This document shows positions 13,908 through 63,780 of a stretch of 64,000 nt of DNA, piece after piece. Within the stretch, counting starts at the first letter, position 1, and each line of letters begins with the position of its first letter. Under the pieces are notes generated by a model, which ran no database searches, had not been told where the DNA came from, and worked only from the letters and a program-made list of their open reading frames with translations. A program made the position numbers and the translations under genes. The stretch is from Camellia lanceoleosa (Eukaryota > Streptophyta > Magnoliopsida > Ericales > Theaceae): NCBI GenBank assembly GCA_025200525.1, contig CM045763.1:59661530-59725529 (forward strand). Direction: 5' to 3'.

Positions 13908-13912
13908 GTCCC

Positions 13913-14098
13913 TGTTAGATTTAATGTATAGAGAAATAGAGAAAGAAATAAATTGTATGTATTGATTTATTGAGTCTGTATTTAATGTTGTGGTTGAGCT
14001 CCTCCTTTATAGAGGAGAGGAGCCAAAAGTGGCACTACAATAAAGTAACATTATTTAAAGCTAACACTAACATTACAGCTAATACACATCCACTAACA
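13913..14098 (-). repeat. 3' LTR of virus-carrying element, 186 bp
   Basis: Starts TGTTAGATTTAATG and ends CATCCACTAACA. On the minus strand it holds a TATA-like CTCTATAAAG box. The adjacent 14099-14109 (ACCCCCCTCAA) read in reverse is the polypurine tract. Confidence 0.9.
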
Positions 14099-14154
14099 AC
14101 CCCCCTCAAATATTAACCAACTTGAGTTTAGAGAGAGTAACAAAACGGAAAAAT

Positions 14155-14375
14155 AAAAGAAAATAAAATAGGATAGGAGACATTGTATGGTCGTGTCAGA
14201 CTGGTGTGGAAGACATTGTATGGTTGTAGCAGACCGGTGTAAAAGACACTATATGGCTCGTGTCAAACCGGTGTAGAAGACGCTGTGAGGTCATGTCGAA
14301 CCGCTGTAGAAGACACTATATGGTCGTGTCAAACCGTTGTAAAAGCTAACCGGAATTAATGTCGAGACAGTTTAT
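14155..14375 (-). repeat. Tandem repeat block of the retroelement family
   Basis: Five or so imperfect units of roughly 35-45 bp containing GACACTATATGGTCGTGTC and ACCGGTGTAGAA phrases, ending in GTCGAGACAGTTTAT where viral sequence begins. The reverse complement of the same repeats lies at about 63000-63360 in the second family member, so the block belongs to the retroelement and not to the virus. Confidence 0.85.
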
Positions 14376-14399
14376 AGGCCACAATGTCCATTTAAGTCG

Positions 14400-15122
14400 A
14401 TGATTATTGACAAATGCAAGTTAAGCTACAGGCCACAATGTCCATTTAATTCTACTGGTCGCGTCGAAGTGGAAATACGAGACACACGGTTACGAGCGAA
14501 TGATCAATTGCAGGCCCGCTTTACGTTTCCAGTTACATGCCTAGTAGACATCACATATTTTGGAAACGCCTATACTGCCGCAGATAAGAAAGAATGCCCA
14601 TGGACAGCGTCGTACAAATTGCTACAAACAAACATCAACGATGATGTGAAATATTGCAAAATGAAAGTCACATTGGCTTTCCAAACATCATCGTTCCCAG
14701 ATGAAATTACTTATCGGCCGCCATTAATAACTGTGTTGTCGAAGGTATTCAACAAAGACCACGTGCATATTTGGCACGTGGAGCGCAAAGTGACGAAAGC
14801 AAGACTAACACGCTCCAATTCCGAATCACATTTTCGATCCACAAAGACATTGTCAGCACCGATGGGCCAATATGGTTCTTCGGCCCAAAGAATAATGGCG
14901 GCACGAATGTCAGCAAGTTCAATTCGGGATGGGCCTGAATCATTCAGTCGGCGCGACATAATTTTGCTGACCCACGGCCCATCAATAATAAACACTGGCC
15001 CAAATAATCAGCCTAGCGGCCCAGTTGAAATAGGCCCATCAGTAAGCAAGGCCGGATCCAATAACTCAGAATCATCAAGACTCACTACAGACGAGGTGTC
15101 TAAATTAATCGAGAAGCTGTAA
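14400..15122 (+). pseudogene. Geminivirus movement protein (BC1-type), 5'-truncated
   Basis: An open frame of 240 codons resembling the begomovirus DNA-B movement protein, which helps viral DNA move between cells at the plasma membrane and plasmodesmata. Family features seen are VEVEIRDTRL near residue 22, an aromatic/hydrophobic FPVTCLVDITYF block, PPLITVLSKVF near residue 105, and a variable Ser/Pro/Gly-rich C-terminus. It converges on the shuttle protein gene about 100 bp away, which is the DNA-B layout. The family is usually nearer 290 residues, and the front is missing where the viral circle was opened. At the junction a 19-bp segment (RPQCPF in both copies) is repeated in frame at about 14377 and 14429. 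The rest of the frame has no stop codon. Confidence 0.82.
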
Positions 15123-15227
15123 AAGCCGCAGTGGAAGGATCCACATCAGCCCAAAAAGCAAATGTACAACGGAGACAATTGTAAAATAATTTGTAACCAA
15201 CAATTGTATTAATAAGAAATTATTTTA

Positions 15228-16070
15228 TTAGTAACAATATTTCAATCTACAATTCAAATGCGCGCTTACAATCGATTTTGTGCGACATTCCCACACAAAA
15301 TAACATATAATTGCGTTTTTTACAATATTATTGTACGCGCCGCTCAGTTGACGTAAATTATCTCGGAATTCGGTTACAACATTCTTTCCGATGTTGATAA
15401 ATGTTTTAACGCCTTGACGACTAACAGTTGGATATTCATTCGATTGCGGCAACATTACTACAGGAACACGCCGCAATACAACAAAACGGTCTATTTCTGT
15501 GCCCCTGACCATACAGTCAGTTCTAGGGTCATCTCTGGACCACAAGAAGACATCTTCAAATTTAGGCGTATACGCAGGATTAGGAAACCGGTCCAACAAA
15601 ATGACAAATTTACACTGGCCATTGTCAAGTATACCAGATGGATCAACGTTCACAAATTGTTCTACAATCTGCATAGGGGCATCAGGCATGTCGTTTTCGA
15701 GGCCAGGCGTATCAGCAGTAACTTCGGAGAGACCACCAGTTTGACGTACAATAACACCCTGGATGTAAAGCCCTAACAGCTTCAATTTTCGGGATAGCCT
15801 TTTATCCCTCTCAGTACCAACCTCCGGCATATCGAAATGAAAAAAATGAGGCTCATCATACGGGAGAAAATCGTCAATCCTCCAGATGGAATCACACAAC
15901 GATTTTGACGTGAATCGTTTTTTTTTTTTGTAATAACTTTGTTTTCGTAGTTTAAAATAACTTCGATCGGAAACACCAGATCTGCTAGACGTTGTCCAAC
16001 GGCGACTAAAATTTAATTTAGTTCTAGCAGTATATGGACGCTGTTGGAAAAAACGGAAAGTAGTCGCCAT
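15228..16070 (-). pseudogene. Geminivirus nuclear shuttle protein (BV1-type)
   Basis: An uninterrupted frame of 280 codons on the minus strand, starting at an ATG about 400 bp downstream (in viral sense) of the DNA-B origin. The first 60 residues are strongly basic (FSRRWTTSSRSG, then YYKKKKR), as expected of the nuclear-localising, DNA-binding N-terminus. The middle carries KFVILLDRFPNPAYTPKFED, and the C-terminus has the FRDNLRQLSGAYNNI region. The shuttle protein exports viral DNA from the nucleus and hands it to the movement protein. The coat protein is a distant relative, but convergent pairing with the movement protein argues for BV1. It is labelled pseudogene because it is an endogenous viral copy, although the frame is intact. 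Confidence 0.75.
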
Positions 16071-16299
16071 AATCGATGATGGAACCCATTAAATGCATAA
16101 CATCGATTTTATTATATAGGCATAATGTGTTGACCGTGACATGGGTTAACACGAACAGTGGGGATTTTGAAAACGATGTTCCTATATAACGTATGGCCAA
16201 AAATAATAACAGATAATAAAAAACGCAGAAACACCAAATCGTGGGCCATACGTATGTTAACTGTTTCGCCTTTCCGCGTGCGCTTCCCTTTAAATTTAA

Positions 16300-16593
16300 A
16301 TTTCCCGCTTGCGCTTGCCTTTTTAGATTTTTAATCCTAGCCGCAGATCTGGGCACGGAGCGAAGACACTAGCAGACAACATGCCACAAAATGCGGAAGG
16401 GAGCACCAATCGGGGGACAACACGTGGCGCGGGGGGAGCATCCCAGGTAATATTAGTGGGACGCTCCTGGGCACCTATATAACTCACTCCCTAACTCTCT
16501 TCCACCAGTATAGTTTTGGGGAGAGTGACTTGCGTTATCCAAGAGAGTTAGTGACGTCATAGAGAGTGAGTTATGGCATCAGTGCGACGTCAT
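16300..16593 (-). promoter_or_regulatory. DNA-B intergenic/common region with origin stem-loop
   Basis: Reverse complement of the DNA-A common region at about 16800-17085, with few differences. A hairpin lies at 16435-16467: an 11-bp stem with one mismatch (GGAGCATCCCA / TGGGACGCTCC) and the nonanucleotide TAATATTAC on the minus strand (16447-16455). A TATA-like box and a GGTGCCC-type element beside the hairpin are also shared. In geminiviruses Rep nicks the nonanucleotide to start rolling-circle replication. A near-identical common region is what cognate A and B components share. Confidence 0.85.
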
Positions 16594-16625
16594 TTTAGGG
16601 ACGTCGTTTTAAATTAATTATTCTC

Positions 16626-16817
16626 CTAACTCTGTGAAACGGGATATATAAGAACATGAATTAGCCATTGATGTGCAACTCTTACATAATTTGGTGGTCT
16701 GGATGTGAACAACTCCCTAATTTTCTCTAATAATCTCTCTTTAGGTATGGAACATTGGGCATATGTGAGGAAGATGTTCTTATTTTGGACTCTAAAACGA
16801 CGTCGCACTGATACCAT
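16626..16817 (-). pseudogene. Geminivirus Rep, N-terminal fragment
   Basis: From the ATG at 16817 the first ~48 codons encode the start of a geminivirus replication initiator, including the rolling-circle motif I string IFLTYAQC followed by a basic/acidic helix. Homology stops around 16670. The remaining 15 or so codons to the stop are not Rep-like and mark the junction with DNA-B. The rest of Rep lies about 2.4 kb away at 19200-18255, so the circular DNA-A was opened inside this gene. The fragment is too short to be functional. Confidence 0.85.
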
Positions 16818-17100
16818 AACTCACTCTCTATGACGTCACTAACTCTCTCGGATGATGCAAGTCACTCTCCCAAAAACTATACTGGTGGAAGAGAGTTAGG
16901 GAGTGAGTTATATAGGTGCCCAGGAGCGTCCCACTAATATTACCTGGGACGCTCCCCCCCGCGCCACGTGTCGTCCCCCGATTGGTGCTCCCTTCCGCAT
17001 TTTGTAGCGTGTTATCTGCTAGTGTCTCCGCTCCGCGCCCAGATCTGCGGTTAGGATTAAAAATCTAAAAAGGCAAGCGCAAGCGGAAAATTTAAATTAA
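16818..17100 (+). promoter_or_regulatory. DNA-A intergenic/common region with perfect origin stem-loop
   Basis: A perfect 11-bp stem (GGAGCGTCCCA at 16923-16933, TGGGACGCTCC at 16945-16955) encloses the loop CTAATATTACC with the conserved nonanucleotide TAATATTAC at 16935-16943. A TATATA box and a GGTGCCC-type repeat lie on the Rep side. This is the canonical geminivirus origin and divergent promoter region. A matching inverted copy lies at 16300-16593. Confidence 0.9.
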
Positions 17101-17166
17101 ACGGTGGCAAACGCAAGCGGTAAATTATATAAGCCAAAATAATTGGGGGTTTTTAATTATTTTGCA

Positions 17167-17526
17167 ATGGAGCCGTCCGATCTAGGTCAATTTTGGCAGT
17201 TGATTTTAAAATACGAGCCGGATCTTTTACTGCTGCACTGGTCCTTGTTGGTTGTTGGCGAAAAAAACGTTGAAAATTTAATCCTGCTCATCAACGCCTT
17301 ACAGCGGCGAGAAGATGCTCTAATCGCCGGTCTGAAAGCGGTTTCTGAATTAAAAACCCAGGCGACGGCTCCATCCATGCAGACTATGGATCAAAGTGCA
17401 GACACACATCCTGCCGCAGATGTCCCTGTGCGTTCTGACTGTGGATGTTTGGATCATAAAAAAAATTGTAAACTAATTGTTTTATATAGCTTTGGTCTTG
17501 CAATAAAATTTGGGCCTTCTCTCTAG
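17167..17526 (+). CDS. Virion-sense ORF of unknown function in DNA-A
   Basis: A 119-residue frame from the first ATG, about 230 bp downstream of the DNA-A nonanucleotide, where geminiviruses place V2 and then the coat protein. The product starts MEPSDLGQFWQLIL. It has a hydrophobic segment (LLLLHWSLLVVG), an amphipathic stretch (ALQRREDALIAGLKAV) and a short Cys/His tail (CGCLDHKKNC). I do not recognise it as V2 or coat protein, and no coat-protein-sized frame exists between here and C3. It could be a diverged V2, a composite left by deletion of the coat protein, or a lineage-specific gene. It has no stop codons. Confidence 0.5.
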   Translation: MEPSDLGQFWQLILKYEPDLLLLHWSLLVVGEKNVENLILLINALQRREDALIAGLKAVSELKTQATAPSMQTMDQSADTHPAADVPVRSDCGCLDHKKNCKLIVLYSFGLAIKFGPSL

Positions 17527-17781
17527 TGTCCACTTCTTTCATAGTTTGGATGGGCCTATGTTTAATGGGCCGCGTCGCTTATTTATGGGCCTATATCTAA
17601 TGATCTGTTATGCCATACGTCTGGGCCTATTTTAATTGTTCCCGTTAAACATTAAATGGGCCTCATTATTGTAATTGGTCCTTTGGTCTGTTAACCAATT
17701 ACAGCCCATTTATCCAGCTTATACCTGCTCAGAAATCTAATTTATTAAAACAACATAAATTCAATAAAATTGCATTTGTAT
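17527..17781. other. DNA-A convergence region, noncoding
   Basis: Lies between the virion-sense ORF and C3. It contains repeated GGGCC(T) words and AATAAA-like sequences on both strands (for example near 17500 and 17763), consistent with converging 3' ends. The length from the virion-sense ORF to C3 leaves no room for a coat protein gene. Confidence 0.6.
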
Positions 17782-18255
17782 TTAATCATAAAAATTTACA
17801 TAAATATTTTCCCATCGCCAATCTTTTACATAATACAACAGCTCGTCGAGTACAATAGTCAGTGCGAGACAATAATTTACAGGGCTAATAATCCCAAAGC
17901 TGGATAATGTCTTCGTCATCCTGCGTGCAATAAGCCGGGAAAATACATTCTCCGATATGCTTTTGAGACCACTGTATGTCAGCCATGTATACATTGTCGC
18001 AGTGAACGTCCGGATTTGCAGTGCTTTCCGGAGGTTGTAGTTGAACGGGCATTCTATCTTGTATACCCCCTAATTCCCCGGCCTGGACATGTCTACGGTT
18101 CTGAACCATATCAGATTGGTCAAAGTGTCGTAGAATACCCCTAACTGCATTCTCTCTCTCCAGTGGATGTGGTTCGATACATCCGTTCGTATGGAATAAC
18201 GAACAGCCGCATTAGAAGTGGAATATCTTCCTGCATTGGGCCTTCTTCTTGGCAT
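17782..18255 (-). pseudogene. Geminivirus C3 (REn) with one in-frame stop
   Basis: A minus-strand frame starting in the TAATG overlap with the Rep stop codon and running to 17782, about 158 codons, interrupted by a single TAG at 18070-18072. After the stop it carries the typical C3 string FNYNLRKAL, followed by a hydrophobic C-terminal half (MYTWLTYSGL and LDELLYYVKDWRWE). REn is a replication enhancer that binds Rep and PCNA. It overlaps C2 in another frame, as in begomoviruses. The stop makes it non-functional as read. Confidence 0.78.
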
Positions 18256-18355
18256 TACGATGCCTCTTCTTGATTGGTTCTGGCAAACAAGGGCTTATCG
18301 ACTGTATTGAATTCTGCGTTTTTGATCGTCCACGCTTTGAGCCCGACGTGTTCAT
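17885..18355 (-). pseudogene. Geminivirus C2 (TrAP) with one in-frame stop
   Basis: A minus-strand frame of about 157 codons from an ATG inside the 3' end of Rep, interrupted by one TAA at 18212-18214. Before the stop is a basic stretch ([14 protein letters not shown]). Directly after it comes a Cys/His cluster (CGCSLFHTNGCIEPH), and the frame ends in an acidic/hydrophobic tail (DDEDIIQLWDY). Basic region, zinc-finger-like cluster and acidic activation tail in that order are the layout of begomovirus TrAP, which activates late viral genes and suppresses silencing. It overlaps C3 and the end of Rep, as expected. Confidence 0.75.
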
Positions 18356-19200
18356 GTTTTTCCAAAAACTCTCTGTAACTAGAACCCTCCCCGGGATTGC
18401 ATAATATAATACTTGGAATCCTGCCCTTTATTTTCTTTGGGCGGGCATATTTACAATTTGAAAAAAAATCCCGTTGGGCGCCAATAAACTCCCGCCAATG
18501 TTTCAAAAATTGTGGAGCCACATCATCGATTATGTTGTAGAAAGCGTCATCCTTGTGGTCCCTCAGATCGATGTGGCCAGAATAATAATTATGGGGCCCC
18601 AAAGACCGGGCCCAACATATTTTCCCAATTCTAGATGGGCTTTCAATTATAATGCTTCTGGGCCTATGCAGTCTTTGGGCTTCGTCCCTTATATTTTCTA
18701 CAACCCATTCTTGTCAGATACGGGGCCGACGATCCATATCGTGGTCTCAGAAATGGATGAACATACGACAATGGCAGATTAAATGAAATCCGATCATAAT
18801 TGGATGACAACTTGTCATAATTAAACCAGAAACATTTGGGATCGCCATTTCTTACCAGTGCCAGTGCTTCATCCTTGGTAGTGGCAGCAAGTGCGTCGCG
18901 ATATATATTTTCTTTGTTATTCTAGTTAGCGCAGCGGCCCCCCTCACGGAATTCGCCCCATTCCGTGTAGTCTCCGTGTTTGGAGATATATTCCAACACA
19001 TTCTGATGGTTGAAAGCCCCTTAAACATTGGGATGGAAATGGCGATTAGTTCGATCGTGAGTTACGTCGAAGAACCGTTCATTCTGGGTCCGAAAACAGT
19101 ATGGAAATTGGACAAGAGCATGGAAATGTGGTTGCCCGTCCTCGTGTAATTCATGTGCGATGTGTCGACCTCGGCTTGCGCTCCCGATTTGTTGCATGGT
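18255..19200 (-). pseudogene. Geminivirus Rep, remainder, with stops and frameshifts
   Basis: Minus-strand remains of Rep downstream of the N-terminal fragment at 16817. Visible in order are the metal-binding HUH-type motif II (HFHALVQF), motif III (VLEYISKHGDY), a degraded P-loop region near 18625-18650, a Walker B-like [13 protein letters not shown], and the sensor string [11 protein letters not shown] close to the C-terminus. Several stop codons and at least one frameshift lie between 19030 and 18640, whereas the last 116 codons (18602-18255) are open. Rep nicks the origin and acts as a helicase in replication. The gene is both permuted and decayed here. Confidence 0.85.
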
Positions 19201-19329
19201 CTATTTAAACGGAGGCCTAGGCTGAGGCTGTGCAAAACAAAACAGACTGAAAACCTCTTCCTGCTCTGAGAGCTGCAAACCCTAAAACACTTTGTAACCC
19301 CCTAACCCCCTGCTTGTGCGGCCTCTGAT
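19200..19329 (+). promoter_or_regulatory. Promoter/leader of the antisense coiled-coil ORF
   Basis: CTATTTAAAC TATA-like box at about 19201-19210, then a G/A-rich leader (GAGGCTGAGGCTG) up to the ATG at 19330. The same arrangement is found in reverse in the second element (about 62690-62800). A promoter conserved in both copies indicates that the ORF is a regular part of the retroelement family. Confidence 0.55.
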
Positions 19330-19545
19330 ATGGCCTCTTCTTCTCGTGGTCCTCTTACCCTCTTTCTAGACCTTAACGAGGTTACAAGAGAGATAACCAG
19401 GGCGATTGTCCTTGAAACTCAACCAAACGTCCTTCTGCCGTCCCCTGTGCTCAACTATCCAGAATGACAGTGGACCAAATAATGGCAACACAATCGGACA
19501 TTGAGGCGAACTCATATACGCTGAAGTCATGTATAGAGACTATGA
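19330..19545 (+). pseudogene. Antisense retroelement ORF, 5' half
   Basis: Starts MASSSRGPLTLFLDLNEVT, matching MASSS...[14 protein letters not shown] of the equivalent ORF at 62681-62346. A frameshift near 19455 is needed to stay aligned; beyond it the residues VDQIMATQSDIEAN and YTLKSCIETM match again. The ORF is cut at 19545 by a 2.5-kb gypsy LTR and continues at 22034. It runs opposite to the retroelement's own sense. I do not recognise a known family. Antisense extra ORFs are known in some plant LTR elements, but I cannot link this one to them. Confidence 0.7.
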
Positions 19546-22033
19546 TCAGAATAACCCTCATCATCAAGCATCGATAAACTATCGACATCGCTAAACTGAG
19601 ACTAATTATGATAAGTAATCGAACTGATTAAAATACTCAATTGATCGATCAAATCAAATCGATTGATTGATATCAGATTCGTTAAATGCATTCTCTATCT
19701 GTTGATTGTTAATTGATCTGTTCATGTCATTGTGTCTAAACTGCTAATTGAAGGCCTTATCGGCGGCCGAATCAGAAATTGACTAATGTTTTACGATCAT
19801 TGGAATTTATGTGATTTTATGGTGTATTTAATTAAAAATGTGTTTTTGGTATGACTAAATTGGATCAACATTGATGAATTATATAAGTTGGCTTTAATTA
19901 TAACTTTGCTATTTGAGTGGGTCACTACACCAAACTTTGTCTAAGACTTAGTCTTCCATTACAAAACATTTCATCAGCCTTGTTAAGTGTCCTAGCCGAC
20001 TAGAGAGAGAGAGAAGAGGGAGAGTTGATTTCATCTCACTTTTGCTTGTTATTGCTTGGAAATTTAGAAGATTAAAGGAGTTCTTGCTTGATTGAGCCTC
20101 TAGACTTGTAATTGAGGAACCTAGGTATGAGTTTCACCCTCTTAATAGTGTATTTAAGTTCCTTCTAGCATGGATCATGGTAGTTTAAAGAGCTAAGTCA
20201 AGAATTGGTTCAATGGTGTTGAATCAGAGCTTGAATCATGCATGCATGTGCATATCCCTCATTTTTTGAGGTTGTTCTTCATAAATTTCCACATGCATGT
20301 TCATGTTAATATTAAGGACCATGATTTCATCGTGAATTTGAAAGAATGAGCTCATTTGAGCAAGCATTGAAGCTTTAAATTAGTTTAAATTCATGCATGT
20401 TATGTTTGAAATTATGTTCATGAAATGTTGTTTGAAATTGAGTTTAATTGAACCACCCTTGGGCTTTGATTTCTTAAATTGATCTTTGAAACATGTAATA
20501 TTATGAGTTTTGAAGTGTTTTCCAAAAAATTAGCCCAAGAGGATCGAAATTTATGCATTAAAACTTGGTTTTGAGCTTGAGGTTTAAATCTGGAATTTCT
20601 AAATTTTGGACCCACGATCGACCGAGAAAATCCACGCTCGAGCGTACACTCTGTGATCACGCCTTCCGCTCGAGCGAGTAAAGTGACGCTCGAGCGTGAA
20701 ATGCGTGCATCTAGTACTTTGCATGAGCTTACAGTCCGCTCGAGTGAGAGAATCCACGCTCGAGCGAGGACTTGTATCTCACGCTCAAGCGAGGGTCGAG
20801 CGCCCATCGAGCGTGAATTTTGAGCATCCAGTATTTTCACTGTAGCTTACAATCCGCTCGAGCGACGGAAGTCACGCTCGAGCGGAGCTCCTTTGTCTGC
20901 ATGTCCGCTCGAGCATAGAAAGCCACGCTCGAGCGAGACCCCTGTTTTTTGAAAATTTTGTAAAGTGTCTAAAAGTGCATCTTTGCATCCTCTTTCCATC
21001 CTAGGCATTCCTAGGGCATCTTTAAGACATCTTAATGAGGATATAGATGTAGAACACACCGAGGAAATTAGGGATTAAGTTATTATCTTTTCCAACTGTG
21101 TAGCTTAGTGTGTGTTCGTTCTGTAAACTGTGTAGGGTTGGCGACTGGAGACACGCTCTAGCCTAACTGGAGCCCAGAACTCTGTGAGTAACAATTGTGT
21201 AAAGATATGTTCAACTGAGAATATTTTCTGAGTGTTTAATCGAATCGCTTCAATCGACATCATTAATCGAATGAACGTATGTCCTATATTCGAATCAGAC
21301 AGTGGTATCCTTAGCAACCATCACATCGCTATCTTACATAGAGATCTCGGCTACCTATTTGGAACTTTCAGGATCGCTTGGTCTTTCAAGACCTCATCAG
21401 CTTCGTCTTTTTAGACCCATCACTTTTACTATACTGTTATACTAATGGATGTACCACATATGATTGTTTACTGTACTGAACAACTGATATATTGATTGAA
21501 ACGACTGTTTTCAATACTAAAGGACATTCATTCTAAACCCCTTTACGCATTATGTTATTCACTGGGTTTTAGCTCACTACTCATATATATATGTAGGTGT
21601 ACAAGCACCAGACCATGGCTAGAAGCATCGGGGTAACTCCAGTTTTGTCAAGCCAACCACTGTGCCTCACAGTGAGGTTCCGAGCCTGTCAAGCTATGGC
21701 TTAGGGGTGTTTTTATTTCCCCTGTCTATCTCTCAGATTCTGCTTTTGTATAATCGTATAGACCGATAGCACTATATCAGCATTATTTAATAGGATTTGG
21801 TCCTGCTTCAATGATTGTAAATATTATGCACTGCTCGTCATCTTGAGTATATATATGTATGAAAAGTCTTTTTGCATACAGACTGTCACAGCTCACTGGA
21901 CATTGTTTATTTACTGTTTTGGCTTCCGCCATGCCCCTCAGATTGCTTTTACAAGATTTGCAGCAGCCTTGATAATCTCTTGACATCGCGATTCTGATGC
22001 TAAAAGCTATAAGGGCGGATTTGGGTCGTGACA
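19546..22033 (+). mobile_element. gypsy solo LTR, about 2.5 kb, inside the antisense ORF
   Basis: Related along its length to the LTR at 1801-4202. It begins near AGAATAACCCTCATC and ends GGGCGGATTTGGGTCGTGACA. The target duplication is ATGA(C): ATGA at 19542-19545 and ATGAC at 22034-22038. The antisense ORF resumes right after it. There is no internal region, so it is a solo LTR left by recombination. Its short frames rich in LER/RSS arise from CTCGAGCG repeats. Confidence 0.85.
20630..20935. repeat. CGCTCGAGCG palindrome cluster in solo LTR
   Basis: About ten full or one-mismatch copies of CGCTCGAGCG, usually in pairs (CCGCTCGAGCG... then ...ACGCTCGAGCG), occupying the same relative place as the cluster at 2867-3072. 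Confidence 0.85.
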
Positions 22034-22333
22034 ATGACTGCAGTCACGAACTTGTCCCGACGACTGCAGAACAGGACGTTTGAAGTGTATCAACTGTCAG
22101 CGCAACTCTCCCTGCTGCAACGGATGTATAAAGATGCTCGAGAAGAGATCAGCTCACTGAAGAAGGAAAATAAAGAGCTGAAACGACAAGTCGCCTCCAA
22201 GGCCCAATTCGGAGTGTCCTCATACTCTACATTTGACGGCCAGCGGGGAATAATTACATTTGGAAGTGCGGCCAAGGCGAAGGCAAAATCATCAAGAGCT
22301 ACGAAGGCGAGGGACGAAGCTGGTGACAAATGA
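22034..22333 (+). pseudogene. Antisense retroelement ORF, 3' half (coiled coil)
   Basis: Continues the ORF broken at 19545: [20 protein letters not shown] matches [14 protein letters not shown] of the second element. A heptad-like coiled coil follows ([20 protein letters not shown], then ENKELKRQV), then a Gly/Ser segment and a basic Ala/Lys-rich tail ([20 protein letters not shown]) ending at a TGA. The coiled coil suggests self-association and the basic tail possible nucleic acid or nuclear binding, both inferred. The corresponding tail in the second element (about 62300-62110) is diverged but again Lys/Ala rich. Confidence 0.7.
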
Positions 22334-23980
22334 AGGTGGGGTGGAAGCGTCGCTGCCGGGCTGGGACCGGAGGAGACAAAAAAAGCTGTGATGGTGTTGT
22401 TGTTGTTGGTTGTGAATTTGTGTTTGGATGTTATGTTTGTTTGTTTGTTTTTTTTTTTTTTTTTGGAATGTGGAACTGAAAAATGTAAGGACTGTAATGG
22501 CAAGGTAAATGGATGTCGCGACAGTTGAGGAGTTTTGTGTTTGTGTGTTATGGAAGGAAATCAAATAAAATATGGTGATGGTGATGAAATGATAAGTATG
22601 GTGATAAATAAAAATAAAATAAAGAAGGTAGTAGAAACAGAATGATTTGTGCAAAAGTTGATTGGGTATGGGTTATAAAGATATATTTGTTTTAGGAAGA
22701 CAAGCTGAAGGGCGTGCTATGAGTGGGGGTGCAACAAACAACACCATAGCAAAGCTTTTTCTCTCATGTGCGAGAAGAATACCCATGTAGCCTACTATCC
22801 AAGGCATGGACAGCATCATTATCTCACATTTATCAACCAAAGACGTGAGGCAAACCCACTTCTTCATTACCAAGTTTAAAATCCCTCAAATTCCCACTTG
22901 AAGACCAACCATGTTCAGATATGCTCCATATAACATATATATAATCTCCACTAAAAAACTTCTGATGGCCCCATCATGACAAATAAACCCACCTACTTGA
23001 TTTTAAAATAGCAACTATCCCAAGTGCTTGCAGCAGTAGCTAAAAGAGCCCATGTGCTTCTTGAAACAATTATAACAGACTGGGAGCAGTATTTTCACCC
23101 ATAACAGCTGAGATGGAGCCAATTGAGATTGGAAATAAAAGTGAAAACCTTTATGATCAAGTATACCCTTTCAGATGAGAGGCAAAGGCTATCCCCATCT
23201 GGAAGGAAGACGTCTCAAAACTGGGTGACATTGAATCCTTATGCTGAAATTCAGCCTCTGAATGGAAGGAGCAATAACAGCAAAGTAAACTAGGGGATGA
23301 CCCAGTTTTTGATTGATTTCCAAGGTTGGAGCTAGCTCACACAAAATATATATCTCTTATCTCAGAAAGAGTTTGCAACAGTGAAGACAAGTGGCGTGGT
23401 CGGCGTTGGCCAGATCACGGCCGAAGACAGTGAGGAAGTTGCAAGTAAAGAACGCAAAGCAAGCCACGCAAGCTAGATGGTCACACGCACAAGGTGGAAC
23501 TCCGGTTGGCTGTCGGGTGGGCTGACGGGGTGCTCGACGACGTGGGTAAGATCTATGCGTGTGAGAGGTGAGAGAGAGAGGTGCCGAGAAGGAGAAACAT
23601 GCATTCGCCTTGTGTGTGTGTCCTCCATGTCTTATCAGTGATAGAGAGAGTTGTTGCCATCAGTGATCTGCGTAGAGCAAAGAGAGAGAGACAACTTTCT
23701 TTCGGAGAGAGAGAGTAAGAGAGTTGAGTTGCAGACATGGTGTTCGACGAAATGTCCCAGAGGTATTTTGGGTTTGCTCCGACGAGGTGGTGAAGAAGAG
23801 TGGAGTGGAGGTGACCAAGATGGAATTTGTTAGAAACTACTACAACAGCAACAACAACAAGATCAAGATCAAGAAGAATAATTTGTGGCAACGGAGTGAA
23901 GATATGTGTAGAGGTCCGGCGGGCAGCCAAAATGAGGCTGCTGCCCGCCCGTGAAGCGAAATTATTAGGTTCTTAACCTC
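22334..23980. other. Retroelement internal region, possible captured sequence, no gene identified
   Basis: The right end (about 23870-23980) matches the 5' leader of the second element, including the GGCGGGCAGC/GCTGCCCGCC inverted pair and the phrase CCGGACCTCTACACAT. Between it and the antisense ORF I see GA-rich and mixed sequence with short frames but no recognisable protein. By comparison with the second element this is where captured host fragments would be expected. Confidence 0.5.
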
Positions 23981-23992
23981 GCTTTGATACCA
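23981..23992 (-). other. Primer-binding site, tRNA-Met type
   Basis: On the minus strand TGGTATCAAAGC follows the end of the 5' LTR directly. It matches the initiator tRNA-Met primer site of plant LTR elements (TGGTATCAGAGC) except at one base. Confidence 0.85.
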
Positions 23993-24499
23993 TGTTAGAT
24001 TTAATGTATAGAGAAATAGAGAAAGAATAAATTGTATGTATTGATTTATTGAATCTGTATTTAATGTTATGGTTGAGCTCCTCCTTTATAGAGGAGAGGA
24101 GCCAAAAGTGGCACTACAATAAAGTAACATTATTGGGTGAATTATACTAATAGTCCCTATAGTTTGGGATTTGTGTCACTTTGGTCCCTGACTTTTCAAT
24201 TGTGACACATTTGACCCTGAATTTTGAATCTTGTTCCAAATAAGGACAATTGAAGATATCATTAGATTTTCCAAGGGTAAAATCGTCAATTTGATAAAAT
24301 ATAAACTAATTTGACAAAAATAAATGTCAATCAAATATTTTTGAATTTGTAAAAATTGGGAGACTTATTTATAAGTCCTTTTTCAGAACCTTATGCTAGG
24401 TTAAGTCCTGTGTAATTTCTTATAGAGTCTCAAGTCCTATTTTCATAAGAATGTATTCCACAAGATCCTAATCTTTTTACCCTTCATTTTCACACCTTT

Positions 24500-24970
24500 C
24501 CTCTCTCACTCTCTCTCTCTCTCTTCTGTTGGTCTTCACTCTCTCTGTTCAGTTCCTCAACTCCGCGGCGTAGATCCGAGAGGAGTTTGGGAAATCGCTC
24601 TCGCAGATTCACTCTCTCTCTCTCTCTCACCTCTTTCTCTCTCTACATCCAAATATCTTCAAGCATCTTTCACTGCTATCAGACATGGCTGGCTTGGGTG
24701 AGGGTTCTCAATTTGATGCTCGTCAATTTGATGCCAAAATGAATGAGTTACCTGTGGGTGATGGAGAAGAATCTTGTTGGGTTGTGCACTGCTATCTGTT
24801 ACATTGCGATTTCAGGTTGGATAAAGAGCTGTGTTTGCGTAGACTCTGGGTGTTTCTATGACTTTCAACTTCCAAAGTACCGGTCCTTTCCCACCCCACG
24901 TTTAGTTGTGCCCAGAGGTTGGGAAGGAAGAAAGCTGAATAATCAGTTGAAGGTGAAGTTTTGGGGATAA
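24500..24970 (+). pseudogene. Captured eIF4A 5' end inside MULE
   Basis: The ATG at 24685 starts MAGLGEGSQFDARQFDAKMN, the distinctive N-terminus of plant initiation factor eIF4A (DEAD-box RNA helicase). It is preceded by a CT-rich leader that looks like the gene's 5' UTR. Similarity ends about residue 22, where eIF4A has an exon boundary, and the frame stops 36 residues later with no helicase motif. An overlapping 75-codon frame at 24743-24970 has no recognisable domain and may come from another captured piece. Not a functional helicase. Confidence 0.8.
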
Positions 24971-25419
24971 ATTTGCTATTGCAGTGTCTACCTCTCTAGG
25001 AATTGCTACAATTTTGTAACTGAGACATCATATACCCAGCGTGATAGATTTTTCGATTTCTCATTTGATGTTGTAGTGAATTTGTCTTTGAGCTATGAAA
25101 CATGATTTGGTTGATCTCACGGTAAATATAAGTCAAAATCTGTAAGATTATGAGAATCAAATTTGTTTCACTCCTTATCTCTTTTTTTTTTTCCATTTTT
25201 TTTTTTAAAACCACAGGTTCAGGCTCAGTGTCAGCCTCTTTAAATGCCTATGTTTTCTTTGATTTTTCTATATAAAAAAAATAAAAAATTCAAAAAATAA
25301 ATAAATTTTTAAATTTTACAATTAATAATCCAAAATAAAAATATATTAAGATTATATATCTATTTCAAAATAAACAGATTAAAAAAATAAAAACTTATTA
25401 AGTTTGCGAAACGTAACGT

Positions 25420-25725
25420 GACACATTACGTTACGTTTATGTAAATGTCACATTACGTTTATATAGGTGTCACATTATGTTACGTTTATGTAGGTGTCAC
25501 GTTACGTTCATATTGGTGTCGCGTTACGTTTATATAGGTGTCACGTTACGTTACGTTTATGTAAATATGTCACATTACGTTTATGTAGGTGTTACGTTAC
25601 GTTGATATTGGTATCACGTTACGTTTATATAGGTGTCACGTTACGTTACGTTTATGTAGATATGTCACGTTACGTTTATATAGGTGTCACGTTACGTTTA
25701 TGTAGGTGTCACGTTTCGTTACGTT
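25420..25725. repeat. Tandem repeat of ACGTTACGTTTAT units in MULE
   Basis: Roughly 12-14 imperfect units of about 20-28 bp built from GTCACGTTACG and TTTATATAGGT. Noncoding; frames through it give only repetitive RLYR/YVTLR strings. Confidence 0.85.
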
Positions 25726-26374
25726 TATATCAATTTCCTATATATATAGTTTTATTATTATTTATGATATTAATAATTAATATTGAGGGTAAATATGTCA
25801 ACAAACTTTCCACAAGACTTATGGGAACATAAGTTTTTTAGTAGGACCATATGTAGCATAAGGTTCCCTAATAGGACTTCTAAATAATTTTCCCTAAAAA
25901 TTATTTCTACCCACTAAAAATAAAATTATGTAAAATTGATAAATCTTTTAGACATTTATGTATTTTTTTTACGAAATTAATTTTTATTATGTGTTTAGAT
26001 AATGATCATGTAAAATTAATTTTTTTTAAAATTAATCATGTAATTTTTATTAATTTTTATCAATTTTACATAATTTTATTTTTAGTGGGTAGAAATAATT
26101 TTTTTAAAATTAAAAAAAAATTGACATTTATTTTTGTCAAATTAGTTTATATTTTATTAAATTGACAATTTGGCCCTTGAAATTAAACAATGATATCTTC
26201 AATTGTCCTTATTTAGAACAAGATTCAAAATTCAAAGTCAAATGTGTCACAATTGAAAAGTTAGGAACCAAAGTGACACGAGCCTCAAACTATAGAGACT
26301 ATTAATGTAATTTGCCCAACATTATTTAAAGCTAACAGTAACATTACAGCTAATACACATCCACAAACAGTCCC

Positions 26375-26630: not shown

Positions 26631-26708
26631 GAAAAACATTTGGGACAATAGACCCAAGAACAGGAGAACAGATAGCAAGGATAGCAGAGGGAGACAAGGA
26701 AGTTGTTA
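26631..26708 (+). pseudogene. ALDH2C-type aldehyde dehydrogenase, exon 2, truncated
   Basis: Follows the acceptor AAAG and continues exon 1 in phase: KTFGTIDPRTGEQIARIAEG then DKEVV, the conserved early NAD-binding-domain segment of cytosolic ALDH. The normal exon continues for about 20 more residues (the AVKAAR...GPWPR block), but here it breaks off at TTA, where an 18-kb PIF/Harbinger-like element begins. The missing part is not found on the element's far side, so the insertion was accompanied or followed by a deletion. Confidence 0.85.
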
Positions 26709-27984
26709 GCCTGCGTTTGGTTGTGTTTTGTAAATGTGATTTGAGAGTATGAGTTGTATTTTGAGTTTATGAGTTGTGAAATTACGATTTGAGTGTAGAA
26801 AATTTATTTGGTTATGATTTTTAAATAGAGTTTTGAATTGCGTTTTAAAGATGTATTTTGAATTAAGTTTTGGAAGTTTGATGTGACATGTGAAAAGTGA
26901 AAATTTGTTTGGTGATGTGTTTTGGAAGTAATTTTCAAAACTTAATTCAACCATAATTTATCATCAAACACACAACTCATATATCGATATCCATATCCAT
27001 ATTTTTTTTCAACAATAATAACCAAACTATTTTTAAAATACTGAAATTAGAAATTGATTTTTTTTGTCAATTATTTTTTTTTACTAATTTTTTTGAATAA
27101 TGGGTATTTCAAAATAATTTTTTCATTTTAAAATAAACCGATGTCAATTTTTTTTCTGCCAATTAATTTTTCTATCAATTCATTTATAAAATACGTTTTC
27201 CATTTTTATGTCGATTTTGTTAAAGTCAACAACTTTTAAAAATATATATTAATAAAGAAGGAATAAATATACTAACTTTAATATTTTAAAATACAAATCA
27301 TAATATAAATCTTACAAAACATTATCAATTTATTTTTCATTTATTACATTTTTTGCAATTTAGTACAGATGTGTAACAGAATTGCAACATATTATTGTAC
27401 CCATTGAGCTCATATAATTGTGGGAGCTCATATAATTGTGGCCGTATGTCAATTCCCACAAAATATAATTGTGGGCAACATGACCATTATGCCCCTCTAG
27501 ACTTAAATGAGAAGTGACTATATAAAACAAAATACAAAAGGTAAGATCGTAATTTCACTTACTTAGTACCTACTCCCTATTATAGAATAGCTGTGTTCAA
27601 CAGTGAAATAAAGAAAAAAGAGAGGATGCTCAGTACACGCATGTGACACTACTTTGAAAAAAATAATAATATTATATTTAATAAATAAAAAGTAAAAAAA
27701 AAATAATAATTACAACAACCTTTTGAACCTCACCCTTTTGAACCTCACCCTTCCTTTTAAATCTGAATCTCATTCTGCACCAACTTCACCATCTTGAAAA
27801 CACTTTCTCCAGTTACATCACAGAACAAAAATTACACAAACAGAAGATATCCACCATCTGATTAGCTCCTCTTTCTCCACTTTCATAATTTACAGGTTAG
27901 TTTTGATGCCAGTTCACCTTCTTATTTGCTTCAGACCAGTCTTCAGACATTAGCTTCACTGGATTAGCTTCACTGGAGGGAAAG

Positions 27985-28040
27985 GGGAGGACGACCGGCC
28001 GGTCATCCCGCCGGACATCCGCCCGGTCATCCTGGCCCAT
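27985..28040. repeat. GC-rich CCGGCCGGTCATCC box
   Basis: A GC-rich island (GACGACCGGCCGGTCATCC followed by GCCGGACATCCGCCCGG) in AT-rich DNA. It is mirrored at about 43300-43365, and a related run lies at about 36443-36530. Confidence 0.7.
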
Positions 28041-28385
28041 ATCTGTTCCATTTTCATAAATCTGTTCAGTATACTCATCTGTTATATTTTCTTATATCTG
28101 TTATAATTTTTTCACACTATCATTTATTTTTCTGATTATCAGTTTCTAAGTTCTAATAAACTGTATGAATCAAACCCCAATGAAATGTATCATTCCCTAT
28201 GAATTTTATTTTTTTTTATATAAATCTGTTTCTTTGGCATCTGCTTAATTAAATTTTGTCACCAAATTTTTTTATATTTATTTTTTACATAATAATAAGT
28301 TTGTATGCACAAAAAGATACTAATGTTTGATATATTTGTCGTACATTTTTCTTACCTCTTATATGTTTTAATATACATTTTTCTT

Positions 28386-29515: not shown

Positions 29516-30179
29516 TTTGGTGAGTTCCGTGTAGACTCCGAGAGACGTGCTGAACTAACAATAAACCGCATTGATCTGATTGACCATCGAGTCACTCAGC
29601 TGTACCATCAACATTTCCCTCCACCTCCAACACCACCGGACAATGATGCTTAATTTGTTTAAAAATCATACGGTGGTTATATTTTTTCCTGCTAATTTTT
29701 GTTTTGCTTATTTATTTGGTGAGTTTTATTGTGATTGTTTTACTTTTGTTATTTTGTTATAAACTTTTCTATTCACGTAATGAATAAGAATGAGGGGTTT
29801 TTTTTGGAAGCATTTAATTACACAGTTATAATGTTAATAACTAGTACGTTATAGATGTCTACGAAAACCTTCATTTCAATAAAAACATAAAAATTACACA
29901 ATTATTAAATAATTTGTGTGCATCAATTAATAGAAAAAATATGACATTAATGTTCTGAAATGAAATACAACGACTTACAATTTAATAATAAACATGTGTA
30001 CCCAAAAAAAAAAATGACATTTAATAATAAACATTCTTTTTTTTTTTAATGAAAAGGAAACAAAAAAAATTTATATAACCTTCTGAACAAAAAAGTGAAT
30101 ATCACCTTTTGCTATAAAATCGGGTGATATAAATAAGTAACATATAATAATTATTTTATGTTGTTTTATTTATTATTCA

Positions 30180-60003: not shown

Positions 60004-60247
60004 TGTTAATAAATACCAGTTGTAATGTTAATATATGCCAAATGTAAAGTTAGTGTAGTATACATCATTATGTTTGTTGTAGCATCATTATGTTTGTAGC
60101 TTTAGCTTTAGCTTTCGGTACTCCATTTGCTTCTCTTCTCTCTATAAAGAGAGCTCATTTCTCTTTGTAATATACACACTGAATATATCAATATAACATT
60201 CATATACATATTCTCCCTCTCTGTACATCTATACATTAAATCTAACA
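60004..60247 (+). repeat. 5' LTR, 244 bp
   Basis: TGTTAATAAATACC...TAAATCTAACA, with a CTCTATAAAGAGAG TATA-type box near 60140. The primer-binding site TGGTATCAGAGCT is at 60248-60260. Confidence 0.92.
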
Positions 60248-60404
60248 TGGTATCAGAGCTATAGGTTAAGCTCTTGGTGTTTTTCGCCTTCCGGCGGGCG
60301 GCAACATTGTCTTGACCGCCCGCCGGACCTCTACACATACCTTCACTCCGCTGCCACAAATTGTTCTTCTTTTTCACCCTTGATTGCACCCACCGTCTGC
60401 ATGC

Positions 60405-60665
60405 AAATCATTTGCCTACTTAAGAGTAGAACTCGGCGACTTCGTAGCCTTCATAGCAGCCGGTAACATCCTCCTCGAATACGTGGTTAGTTGCGCCGCC
60501 GTAGCGCGTTCATGGACCTCATACTTCGCCACCCTCTGCAATCGAAAACCCGAAAACTTCGGCATCCATGCCCACGGCCTCGCCAGCGGCTACAACGAGC
60601 TCAACCCCATCTCCATTGGCGTCCTCATCGCCATCTGCATCTGCCCTGTCGTCTGCACCCAAGGC
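60405..60665 (+). pseudogene. Captured cationic amino acid transporter (CAT) fragment
   Basis: The frame reads SFAYLRVELGDFVAFIAAGN, ILLEYVVSCAAVARSWTSYF, then a KPE-type linker and NELNPISIGVLIAICICPVV. These are the early transmembrane helices of plant CAT/APC transporters, which carry arginine, lysine and other amino acids across membranes. The similarity is exonic and stops at TQGSS. There is no start or full set of about 14 helices, so it is a captured fragment. It is in the element's sense orientation. Confidence 0.85.
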
Positions 60666-60811
60666 TCTTCTCCTACTAACAACAATGGTGATGAACGCAG
60701 CATCATTCTCCACACGTTGCTCCTATCAACCACAATTTCTCTTACTGAACTTCTTCCATTCAAAGAACCACTAAACACGCGTTGCTCAACTCTGCATCAA
60801 CAATTGAATCA

Positions 60812-61015
<204 letters not shown>

Positions 61016-61239
61016 AATCCTCTTCAAAACCATAACCAATTCCAAAAAAAAAGAAAGCACAGGATTCTCACCAGCTCACCAACGGTCATGGGTTTCTTGC
61101 CCTTACCCGAACCCACCGGGTTGCTCTGACCTGGACAGAGCGAAACAGTGAGTTTGGTGGTCCACGGTGGTTCACAGCGGTCGACGACGGTGTAGCAACG
61201 GTGGTGGCTCGGTGCAGAGAGAGCTTCGGCAGAGAGAGT

Positions 61240-61330
61240 CGGAGCAACACCACCTTTGGTCCTCCAATCAACAGACTCCGGCAACTCCTCGTTACCTCGG
61301 ACGACATATCTCCGGCTCAACCCCACATTG
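61240..61330 (-). pseudogene. Captured papain-like cysteine protease fragment
   Basis: On the minus strand, RRYVVRGNEELPESVDWRTK then GGVAP matches the start of the mature domain of plant papain-like proteases (LPESVDWR-KGAV-P). It breaks off just before the catalytic Q...C region. The sequence on either side is unrelated. A short exon fragment, not functional. Confidence 0.8.
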
Positions 61331-62100
61331 GACTTACCTGGACCGGGCTAATGTCATGGCTAAGAGATATCCACCAAATTCCTTCCTATCATGGTGCTCA
61401 TGCCTCAGAAATTTGCTCTCTGCTTTACTTTTGGATGTGCCTTGATTATCGGTTCATTCTTTCATTACCAATAAACAATTCAATTCAATTCAAAAAAAAA
61501 AAACCTGAGTGGGTTGCACACTGTTTACACATTCCACTACCCATTTTTTTTTTTTTTTTTTTTCAAATCTTTAACCAGTGCGTTGCACACTGTTGCTCTT
61601 CCCACTACCTCTATTTTATTGTTATTATATTTTACCAATTCAAAACACATCGGTGGTTAAGTCATCACCTGCTCTAATTCCACCCCGATGCCGAGAAGGT
61701 GCTCTGGAAAGTGAAAATGAACTCCAAATGCTCTCACTTTTTCATACCCTTTTTGCTTTTCTTCTTTTATTTCTTTCTTTTTTCTTTTCATCCATTTTAC
61801 ACCACCAAACCCATGTGATATCCCCATTCCCCTTGTCTGAAACCCACTCTCTCTTCACAAATATTCCATCAAAACAAAAAACAAAAACGAAAAAAAACAA
61901 CAACAACAAAAAAAAAAAAAAAAATCCATAAACATCCACCAAACACACACAAATTTCATACCACACACACAAATTTCTACTGCCCTCCGAGTTACCCAAC
62001 CATCTTATTTTATTCCTATTGGGGATCAAACCCGATCACCATTTTACAACCACAAAAAAAAAAAAAAAAACCATCACACCCCACACCCACCACAACAACC
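61331..62100. other. Element internal region, no gene identified
   Basis: Contains poly-A/T tracts (near 61495, 61545, 61900 and 62060) and mixed sequence. The phrase ALIPPRCREGALESENELQM (61671 on) may be another captured piece but I do not recognise it. Confidence 0.4.
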
Positions 62101-62109
62101 AGCCTTACT

Positions 62110-62681
62110 TTTTCGCCTCTTCAGCTGTTCTCTTATTTTTGCCTTTGTCTTGGGCGTCCCTTGCCGGTGCTGCCTCCGTGTTTCCCACGCCGCTGAGCAC
62201 GTTCACTTCCCGTTGCTCCTCCACTGTCACATATGGCGGACCTCCAAATCTGAGCATCACGGTGGCCTTCCGCTTCCTTGTTTTTCGCCTTCAAAGACAC
62301 ATATCTCGCTTTCGCATCCGTGATACATGCTACTGGAGCAGAGCGCTAGTTAGGCTTTTTACCACAGACCTCCTCATTTGTTCTACTTTGAAGCCGGTGC
62401 GACAGGTTGTTGACCGCCGTCATTGTCTCAACACATGACTTCAGAGTATAATGATTGGCCTCAATATCCGATTGAGCAGCCATTATCTGCTCAAATGACA
62501 ACATTGTAAAGTTCAACGGCGCAAAACCAGGGGCGCTTGGTCCAGGGGCGCTTGGTTGAGGTTCAAGGGCAACTGCCCCGGCTATCTCTCTTGTGGCCTC
62601 GTTGAGGTCGGGAAAGAGAGTGAGCAGACCACGGGACGAAGAGGCTATGTTCTGGGTAGCTGAATGGGAAGAAGAGGCCAT
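62110..62681 (-). pseudogene. Antisense coiled-coil ORF, second family member
   Basis: A minus-strand frame from the ATG at 62681 reads [55 protein letters not shown] and [14 protein letters not shown], closely matching the ORF at 19330/22034. Matching stops at about 62365. The coiled-coil segment is missing, and a diverged Lys/Ala-rich tail can be traced to about 62110. It has its own TATTTAA-type promoter at about 62785, shared with the other copy. It runs against the element's sense strand. Family unknown. Confidence 0.65.
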
Positions 62682-62999
62682 TTTCTGGGCACCAGAGTGT
62701 TACAGAGTATCTCTCTCAAGAAAACGAAGAGTTTTTCAGCAGGTTTTTTGTCACAATCTCAACCTCAGCCTCAGCCTCCGTCTTGGTTAAATAGCCAAGG
62801 CAGACACGCGCATCGCGCTCTTCTCAACGCCAGACGACAAACCGGGCACACAAGCCAAGGAGGGCACGTGCCTCGTTGCGTATCCGGCGCGCCTTTTGAT
62901 GGCTCGCCGCTCGAAGAATTCTGTCGGGCACGCCTTTTGATGGCACACCTTTTTATGGATTGGGCACGACTTTTGAGGCATATACACGAACATACAGTG

Positions 63000-63360
63000 T
63001 ATTCTCCAACGGTTTAACACGACCACACAGTGTCTGCTACATCGGTCCGACATGACCTCATAAACTGTCCCGACATTGATTCCGGTCAGCCTCTACAACA
63101 ACGGTCTGACACGACCACATAGTGTCTTCTACATCGGTCCGACATGACCCCATAAACTGTCCCGACATTGATTCCGGTCAGCCTCTACAACAACGGTCTG
63201 ACACGACCACATAGTGTCGCATAACGGTCCGACATGACCTCAGAATCGCTCGCTATAACGGTCCGACATGACCTCAGAATCGCTTTCTACAACGGTCCGA
63301 CATGACCTCAGAACCCTCTCTACAACGGTCTGACACGACCATACAGTGTCTCCTATCCTA
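63000..63360 (+). repeat. Tandem repeat block of the retroelement family
   Basis: About eight units of 30-75 bp containing CGGTCCGACATGACCTCA or CGGTCTGACACGACCAC, plus a longer ATAAACTGTCCCGACATTG unit. Reverse complement of the block at 14155-14375. It lies just before the polypurine tract. Confidence 0.88.
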
Positions 63361-63451
63361 TTTTATTTATTTGTCATTTTATTTTCACGTTTTGTTACTC
63401 TCTCCAAACTCAAGTTGGTTAATATTTATCCTCCTTGAGTTTGAGGGGAGC

Positions 63452-63780
63452 TGTTAATATATACCAGTTGTAATGTTAATATATGCCAGATGTAAAGTTA
63501 GTGTAGTATACATCATTATGTTTGTTGTAGCATCATTATGTTTGTAGCTTTAGCTCTAGCTTTCGGTACTCCATTTGCTTCTCTTCTCTCTATAAAGAGA
63601 GCTCATTTCTCTTTGTAATATACACATTGAATATATCAATATAACATTCATATACATATTCTCCCTCTATGTACATCTATACATTACTCATTTCTCTTTG
63701 TAATATACACACTGAATATATCAATATAACATTCATATGCATATTCTCCCTCTCTGTACATCTATACATTAAATCTAACA
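63452..63780 (+). repeat. 3' LTR, 329 bp, with internal 85-bp duplication
   Basis: Matches the 5' LTR except that the segment from CTCATTTCTCTTTGTAATA to CATCTATACATTA occurs twice in tandem, accounting for the extra 85 bp. Confidence 0.9.

What the first reader, a model, noticed from the sequence alone, without database searches (positions are those of the whole stretch)
13913..26369. An LTR retrotransposon carrying both components of a bipartite geminivirus
Seen: LTRs with an exact 5-bp target duplication, a tRNA-Met primer site and a polypurine tract enclose about 4.8 kb that encodes movement protein, shuttle protein, Rep, C2 and C3 plus two origins. The sequence on both sides of the virus is typical of the element, because the second family member has it without the virus. 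Known: endogenous geminivirus DNA occurs in some plants, usually as Rep-containing pieces. Inference: the virus either integrated into a resident element or was picked up and moved with it. The latter would make a retroelement a vehicle for viral genes.
Basis: partly seen in the sequence, partly recalled or inferred. Interest (0 to 1): 0.96.

Follow-up and report, generated by a model that had tools for sequence, protein, structure and literature searches.

The report
Two-part plant virus inside a retrotransposon
A plant chromosome, likely of a Camellia (tea relative), carries nearly all of both DNA circles of an ancient two-part geminivirus inside an old LTR retrotransposon; the virus most likely broke into an element already sitting there rather than being carried by it, and this viral lineage appears to lack a coat-protein gene.

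Summary
The structure is real. An LTR element (13914-26369, minus strand, duplication GTCCC) holds 4.77 kb of geminivirus DNA: DNA-B (14389-16673; open shuttle-protein ORF, movement-protein ORF without its start) joined head to head to a whole, permuted DNA-A unit (16667-19158; Rep broken by two stops and a frame change). The host assembly has at least 141 clusters of scored geminivirus hits. Each of the three junctions, searched genome-wide, matched in full only here among 40 scored places; other viral copies end within 4 bp of the viral edges, and seven element relatives have no virus at that place. Co-mobilisation is not supported; repair-type integration into a resident element fits best, though LTR and viral decay ages overlap and do not prove the order. 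Beyond the finding: in 16 other loci the DNA-A unit leaves no room for a coat gene; a conserved unknown ORF (17167-17526) stands there, and 0 of 150 scored coat-type hits lie within 50 kb of 78 scored hits of this lineage. MP and NSP dN/dS fall from 0.5-0.6 to 0.2-0.3 with distance, so copies mostly diverged as replicating virus. Endogenous geminiviruses in tea are known; the linked A+B, coat-less anatomy is the new part.

The parts
13909..13913 (.). target site duplication GTCCC, left copy
13914..14098 (-). 3' LTR of the element
   Evidence: 4 substitutions and 1 gap in 184 aligned positions against the other LTR
14099..14109 (-). polypurine tract
   Evidence: sequence; motif type recalled
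14110..14375 (-). element interior with about 33-bp tandem units, shared with relatives that lack the virus
14376..14395 (+). 20-bp filler at the left junction, a repeat of viral 14430-14449
14389..16673 (-). geminivirus DNA-B, about 214 bp short of the unit seen at other loci
14400..15122 (+). movement protein (BC1) ORF, 240 aa, start of the gene missing
15228..16070 (-). nuclear shuttle protein (BV1) ORF, 280 aa, open
16271..16598 (-). common region of DNA-B, origin loop at 16447-16455
16667..16673 (.). B/A joint, 7-bp overlap of the two components
16667..19158 (+). geminivirus DNA-A, whole unit circularly permuted, opened inside Rep
   Evidence: at other loci 19158 abuts 16667
16668..16796 (-). 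N-terminal piece of Rep
   Evidence: Gemini_AL1 positions 1-43
16792..17123 (+). common region of DNA-A, origin loop at 16935-16943
17167..17526 (+). conserved 119-aa ORF of unknown kind at the coat-protein position
17785..18069 (-). C3 (REn)-like piece
   Evidence: E=2.4e-4, below curated cut-off
17888..18211 (-). C2 (TrAP)-like frame, weak
   Evidence: E=0.64
18258..19158 (-). rest of Rep, broken by two in-frame stops and one change of frame
19162..19545 (-). element interior resumes
19546..22029 (.). further insert in the element, related to window 1868-4202; relatives L062 and L063 run straight from 19545 to 22030
22030..23980 (-). element interior
23981..23992 (-). primer binding site TGGTATCAAAGC (initiator tRNA-Met type, recalled)
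23994..26369 (-). 5' LTR, split by a MULE-like insert 24135-26317 with 9-bp duplication
26370..26374 (.). target site duplication GTCCC, right copy
60004..63780 (-). second member of the element family, without virus at that place, duplication GATCC; its likeness to the first runs on the opposite strand

Best explanation
Most of DNA-B and a whole unit of DNA-A of an ancient two-part geminivirus lie head to head inside an LTR retrotransposon, likely because viral DNA was captured by break repair in an element that already sat in the chromosome, and not because the element carries the virus. Shown: element anatomy, viral anatomy, a 7-bp overlap at the A/B joint, a 20-bp copied filler at the left joint, junctions found in full at this locus only among the places scored, and relatives of the element without virus at that place. 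Inferred: the two circles were joined and inserted by end joining, with loss of roughly 150-500 bp of element sequence; since then Rep has been broken and the copy has decayed without selection. The same viral lineage likely entered the genome many times as A, B and mixed pieces, while it was still a replicating virus; its DNA-A appears to have had no coat-protein gene.
For: Junctions: 1 of 40 scored places each. Element relatives without virus at that place: 7 of 7 examined (6 copies in L061-L064, and the window's second member); about 150-500 bp lie between their two element edges (read by hand). Micro-overlap and filler. 20 of 49 viral loci hold both A and B pieces within about 3 kb. Two other sites show 78-bp (L011) and 170-bp (L036 and its duplicate L044) host repeats on both sides of the virus. 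MP and NSP dN/dS among copies fall from 0.60 to 0.21 and from 0.50 to 0.27 with rising dS. Private changes in this copy: 66 of 4,697 sites; in MP, NSP and the unknown ORF together 21 nonsynonymous to 5 synonymous; 47 of 66 are C>T or G>A, as in a dead methylated copy.
Against: Ages do not order the events: LTR divergence per branch 1.1% (95% about 0.3-2.7%) against viral private change 1.4% (1.1-1.8%), so the virus may be as old as the element's own insertion. MP and NSP frames are open although Rep is broken. Searches score only the best 40 places, so a much-decayed second copy of a joint could be missed. Of some relatives only part of the element was fetched (the C9 one runs beyond L062). 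The assembly was not checked with reads.
Confidence: 0.8

Rival explanations
1. The virus entered a sister copy of the element first, and the virus-bearing element then moved here as a unit; the source copy has since been lost or is not assembled.
For: Complete LTR-to-LTR structure with an exact 5-bp duplication; LTR and viral decay are of the same size.
Against: No second full match of any junction among 40 scored places each in a 3.0-Gb assembly; close family members by LTR are few (C9 88-92%, C1 82-83%); 7 of 7 relatives examined lack virus at that place.
Confidence: 0.13
2. The joint is an assembly artefact: free viral DNA or another viral locus joined to a repeat by the assembler.
For: No read data could be checked; the genome is repeat-rich.
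Against: The virus lies well inside a 210-Mb contig with element sequence on both sides in the order seen in relatives; filler and 7-bp overlap look like repair (recalled), and the copy shows its own decay.
Confidence: 0.04
3. The element captured viral sequence by template switching during reverse transcription, as it may capture host gene pieces.
For: No long ORF stands in the element interior, and the window's second member seems to hold host-gene-like stretches (by eye; no Pfam hit for 60384-60839).
Against: The insert holds genes on both strands, two origins and the common regions of two circles head to head, which points to DNA, not to viral RNA.
Confidence: 0.03

Closest known systems
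Endogenous geminiviral sequences (EGV) of Camellia sinensis (Sharma et al. 2020, PMC7758297; abstract, sections 19, 20, 23, 24 and passages read)
   Same: High-copy Rep-bearing geminivirus DNA in tea, in two Rep clades (2 and 3); potential shuttle proteins noted; transposon domains noted near EGVs in general; the only complete unit assembled there was of Clade 3, with a coat gene
   Different: Here both components are seen joined in one insert, with unit sizes, common regions and no coat gene, inside a defined LTR element. Whether this Rep belongs to Clade 2 was not tested by a tree
Yam EGV1/EGV2 (Filloux et al. 2015, PMC5014472; passages read)
   Same: Begomovirus-like integrated sequences (EGV1 unit 2,642 bp) reported without detectable coat and TrAP gene homologues
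   Different: No movement protein reported there; here DNA-B with MP and NSP is linked to DNA-A
Camellia oleifera geminivirus, MP and NSP records
   Same: Nearest named viral proteins: MP 87% identity over 100% of the query, NSP 76% over 65%
   Different: Only its MP and NSP were compared; its DNA-A was not seen
Macadamia endogenous geminiviral element (PMC8626973; passages read)
   Same: Decayed, partly duplicated endogenous geminivirus, placed in Clade 2 in print
   Different: AV1 (coat) genes with broken frames are reported there; organisation called similar to monopartite begomoviruses
Olea europaea geminivirus (PMC8000510; passages read)
   Same: Two-part geminivirus of a woody plant outside the named genera
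   Different: Free virus; DNA-A has a coat gene; MP is on the virion strand

Membership tests
Bipartite geminivirus (begomovirus-like) | DNA-A with Rep, C2, C3 on the complementary strand | tested here: inconclusive
   Rep met: four pieces over the Pfam cut-off; C3 just below its cut-off, C2 not significant
Bipartite geminivirus (begomovirus-like) | DNA-B with NSP on the virion strand and MP on the complementary strand, convergent | tested here: met
Bipartite geminivirus (begomovirus-like) | Shared common region with TAATATTAC stem-loop | tested here: met
   332 aligned positions, 92.5% identity, two origins
Bipartite geminivirus (begomovirus-like) | Coat protein gene on DNA-A | tested here: not met
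   no Pfam coat hit for the ORF or eight other stop-to-stop pieces within 16831-17904; no room for it in 16 other loci
Genus Begomovirus | Rep within the genus by phylogeny | not tested
   no tree built; Rep is broken here
Endogenous viral element | Flanked by host DNA with its own post-integration decay | tested here: met
LTR retrotransposon | Two LTRs, 5-bp duplication, primer site, polypurine tract | tested here: met
Non-autonomous LTR retrotransposon | No gag-pol frames | tested here: inconclusive
   no ORF above 140 aa in the non-viral interior, but only one interior ORF was given to Pfam
Retroelement acting as vehicle for viral genes | Same virus/element junction at several loci with different duplications | tested here: not met
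   (40 scored places each)

The most novel reading that the evidence does not exclude
Camellia was colonised by a coat-protein-less two-part geminivirus that kept replication and cell-to-cell movement genes under selection but gave up the insect-borne particle, persisting through the germ line by repeated integration: a plant counterpart of envelope-less endogenous retroviruses, perhaps arisen in yams too.
Probability: 0.35. Interest if true: 0.82.

Novelty: new variant of a known kind. Interest (0 to 1): 0.55.

Why it matters
It also shows an endogenous geminivirus lineage with both components of a two-part genome joined in one insert, and DNA-A units without the coat gene that print calls conserved in all geminiviruses then described (PMC5014472, passage). 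If that lineage replicated and moved without a coat protein, integration into the germ line may have been its way to spread, a question that can be tested in existing Camellia and yam genomes.

Tried and rejected
Co-mobilisation by the element: rejected on the junction searches and the relatives without virus. Dating the order of events: LTR against viral private change gave overlapping ages, so it decides nothing. Identity of the 119-aa ORF: no homologue among 4 candidates, no Pfam family, a low-confidence helical model (mean pLDDT 54.7) that I did not search further. A tblastn of an open coat-type ORF from L065 against the other loci held found 1 of the 9 other coat-type loci, so it was too weak to serve as a control. 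The phage collection holds no match to the NSP. Paper searches on endogenous, LTR-borne or coat-less geminiviruses (listings only, except the papers named in Closest known systems) showed no title or abstract start that describes this anatomy; supplements could not be opened.
Full report
What was checked. The window is G000:C6:59661530-59725529 of a 3.0-Gb plant assembly in 790 contigs. The nearest proteins to its viral ORFs are those of Camellia oleifera geminivirus (MP 87% identity over 100% of the query, NSP 76% over 65%) and predicted proteins of Camellia sinensis (NSP part, 76-77%); the hits lie mostly on contigs C1-C15, those whose length was shown being 133-226 Mb, so a Camellia is inferred, not shown.

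The element. LTRs lie at 13914-14098 and 23994-26369; the latter is split by a MULE-like insert (24135-26317) with a 9-bp duplication. GTCCC stands directly outside both ends. The primer site and polypurine tract are on the minus strand. The LTRs differ by 4 substitutions and 1 gap in 184 positions, about 1.1% per branch, 95% limits near 0.3-2.7%. A second member with its own GATCC duplication lies at 60004-63780. A further 2.5-kb insert lies at 19546-22029. Close relatives by LTR are few: C9 at 88-92% and C1 at 82-83%; apart from this element's own pieces, the other matches among the 40 scored (263 candidates) are weaker or partial.

The virus. DNA-B covers 14389-16673 and DNA-A 16667-19158, head to head, sharing 7 bp at the joint. 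At other loci 19158 abuts 16667 with a 10-bp overlap, so the A part is a complete unit of about 2.48 kb cut inside Rep; at other loci about 214 bp lie between 16673 and 14389, so the B part lacks that stretch, next to the start of the MP frame. MP and NSP frames are open. Rep is in pieces: two in-frame stops and one change of frame. C3 is just under its Pfam cut-off and C2 is not significant. The two common regions are 92.5% alike over 332 aligned positions and each has a TAATATTAC stem-loop. The nonanucleotide alone is not rare in the window (6 matches, 1.43 expected); it is the pair inside inverted common regions that counts.

The decisive test. Left (14260-14520): 991 candidates, 40 scored places, 1 full match, this one; the 39 others match only from 14389-14393 on. 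Centre (16540-16850): 341 candidates, 40 scored places, 1 full match; the 39 others start at 16667. Right (19080-19340): 276 candidates, 40 scored places; 1 full match, 33 viral copies that stop at 19157-19161, and 6 element copies that begin at 19155-19170. The 6 element copies were fetched in four stretches and have no match to 14400-19150; their two element edges, like those of the window's second member, lie about 150-500 bp apart (distances read by hand). Of the C9 relative nearest by LTR only the part within L062 was seen, which includes the site. The virus thus sits where relatives have a few hundred bases, with a 20-bp copy of nearby viral sequence at its left edge.

Is viral DNA moved by any element elsewhere? 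Among 51 loci (L001-L060 less this locus three times and six element copies), stretches of 60 bp or more without match to the window's virus were compared. The two largest groups (23 and 12 loci) lie between viral stretches and are taken as viral sequence missing or diverged here. Other stretches were shared with high identity only by pairs on the same chromosome (L001/L002, L030/L033, L036/L044) and by overlapping or neighbouring loci; L019 shares a 75% stretch with L036/L044, and L011 shares short stretches (77-86%) with L038/L046. No dispersed virus/element junction was found in this sample, whose flanks are at most about 1.5 kb. L036/L044 carry a 170-bp and L011 a 78-bp host repeat on both sides of viral DNA, and L034 a 516-bp repeat in tandem-repeat-like flanks; the first two again look like break repair.

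Age. At sites covered by at least 6 other loci (matches of 85% identity or more), this copy has 66 private changes in 4,697 (1.41%, limits 1.09-1.78%), 47 of them C>T or G>A; in MP, NSP and the 119-aa ORF together 21 are nonsynonymous and 5 synonymous. This is an upper bound on decay since integration and overlaps the LTR figure, so timing neither supports nor excludes a joint arrival. At assumed rates of 6.5e-9 to 1.3e-8 per site and year (recalled) both give about 0.8-2.2 million years.

How the copies arose. Among copies, summed dN over summed dS falls with distance: MP 0.60 to 0.21 (21 copies, 185 pairs), NSP 0.50 to 0.27 (16 copies, 113 pairs), the 119-aa ORF 0.60 to 0.49 (20 copies, 189 pairs) (L035, L046, L056 and L059 were dropped as overlapping others, as were short or weak matches and codons with stops or gaps). 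Pairs are not independent, and the fall is slight for the 119-aa ORF. Distant copies thus diverged mainly while the proteins mattered, that is as virus, with neutral decay on top. Of 49 loci, 18 hold A only, 11 B only and 20 both (a few of these overlap).

No coat gene. In 12 other distinct loci one match runs unbroken across the place where the coat gene should be (13 matches; L048 and L056 overlap), with lengths within 46 bp of the window's; in 4 more (L003, L004, L008, L042, the last overlapping L059) the gap between flanking matches is 352-404 bp against 331-372 in the window. Coat genes of geminiviruses are about 750 bp (recalled). In that place stands an ORF of 119 aa, recognisable in 25 held loci, some overlapping, with and without stops, conserved in ten aligned copies chosen for lack of stops, without known relatives or Pfam family. 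The family search for Gemini_coat scored 150 of 500 candidates; 0 of these 150 lie within 50 kb of the 78 scored DNA-A or MP places of this lineage, while 10 of 150 scored Rep hits have one within 10 kb, none of them among the 55 Rep hits near this lineage. Against: the NSP of this lineage did not come among the 150 scored, so weakly scoring coat genes could be missed too; a tblastn control was too weak; a coat could have been supplied by a third DNA or another virus.

What is known. Sharma et al. 2020 (PMC7758297, abstract, sections 19, 20, 23, 24 and passages read) report 997 and 1,037 predicted Rep proteins in two tea varieties, potential shuttle proteins, two Rep clades, and a complete unit for Clade 3 only. 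Yam EGV1 is a 2.6-kb unit without detectable coat gene (PMC5014472, passages read). LTR elements make up about a third of tea genomes (PMC11369818, passages read: 33-36%), so landing in one is expected by chance. Novelty here lies in the linked A and B, the coat-less DNA-A over many loci, and the selection pattern, not in the retroelement.

Noticed in passing
30510-34235: Endogenous caulimovirid-like pieces: viral movement protein (PF01107, E=8.7e-14) at 32664-33383 (-), zinc-knuckle frame at 33696-34235 (-), DUF7746 frame at 31254-32099 (-), with an inverted copy of 32925-33721 at 30510-31306 (99% identity). That they are caulimovirid is recalled, not tested.
   Followed up: partly
26706-30177 and 41159-44635: A 3.5-kb inverted duplication at 96% identity, with further inverted stretches 34158-35873 / 39632-41164 (82-88%) and a transposase-like ORF (DDE_Tnp_4 at 39968-40414), so the caulimovirid-like region lies inside a large palindrome-like structure.
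   Followed up: no
60004-63780: The second element member seems to hold stretches resembling host genes (by eye: amino-acid transporter and ubiquitin-conjugating enzyme like); Pfam gave no hit for 60384-60839.
   Followed up: partly
P0001, P0004, P0007: Two Camellia sinensis predicted proteins join a zf-GRF/zf-CCHC protein to shuttle-protein-like sequence, and P0007 of Rhododendron griersonianum is an annotated movement-protein-like gene (54% identity), hints of further endogenous copies in Ericales.
   Followed up: no
L011 1169-1246 / 2366-2443; L036 589-758 / 1934-2103: Host repeats of 78 bp and 170 bp flank viral DNA directly on both sides, larger than transposon target duplications.
   Followed up: partly
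L065 (G000:C10:163055539-163056195): A coat-type hit scores far above the other coat hits (E=3.1e-42 against 1.7e-26 for the next) and its DNA has no match to this lineage.
   Followed up: no
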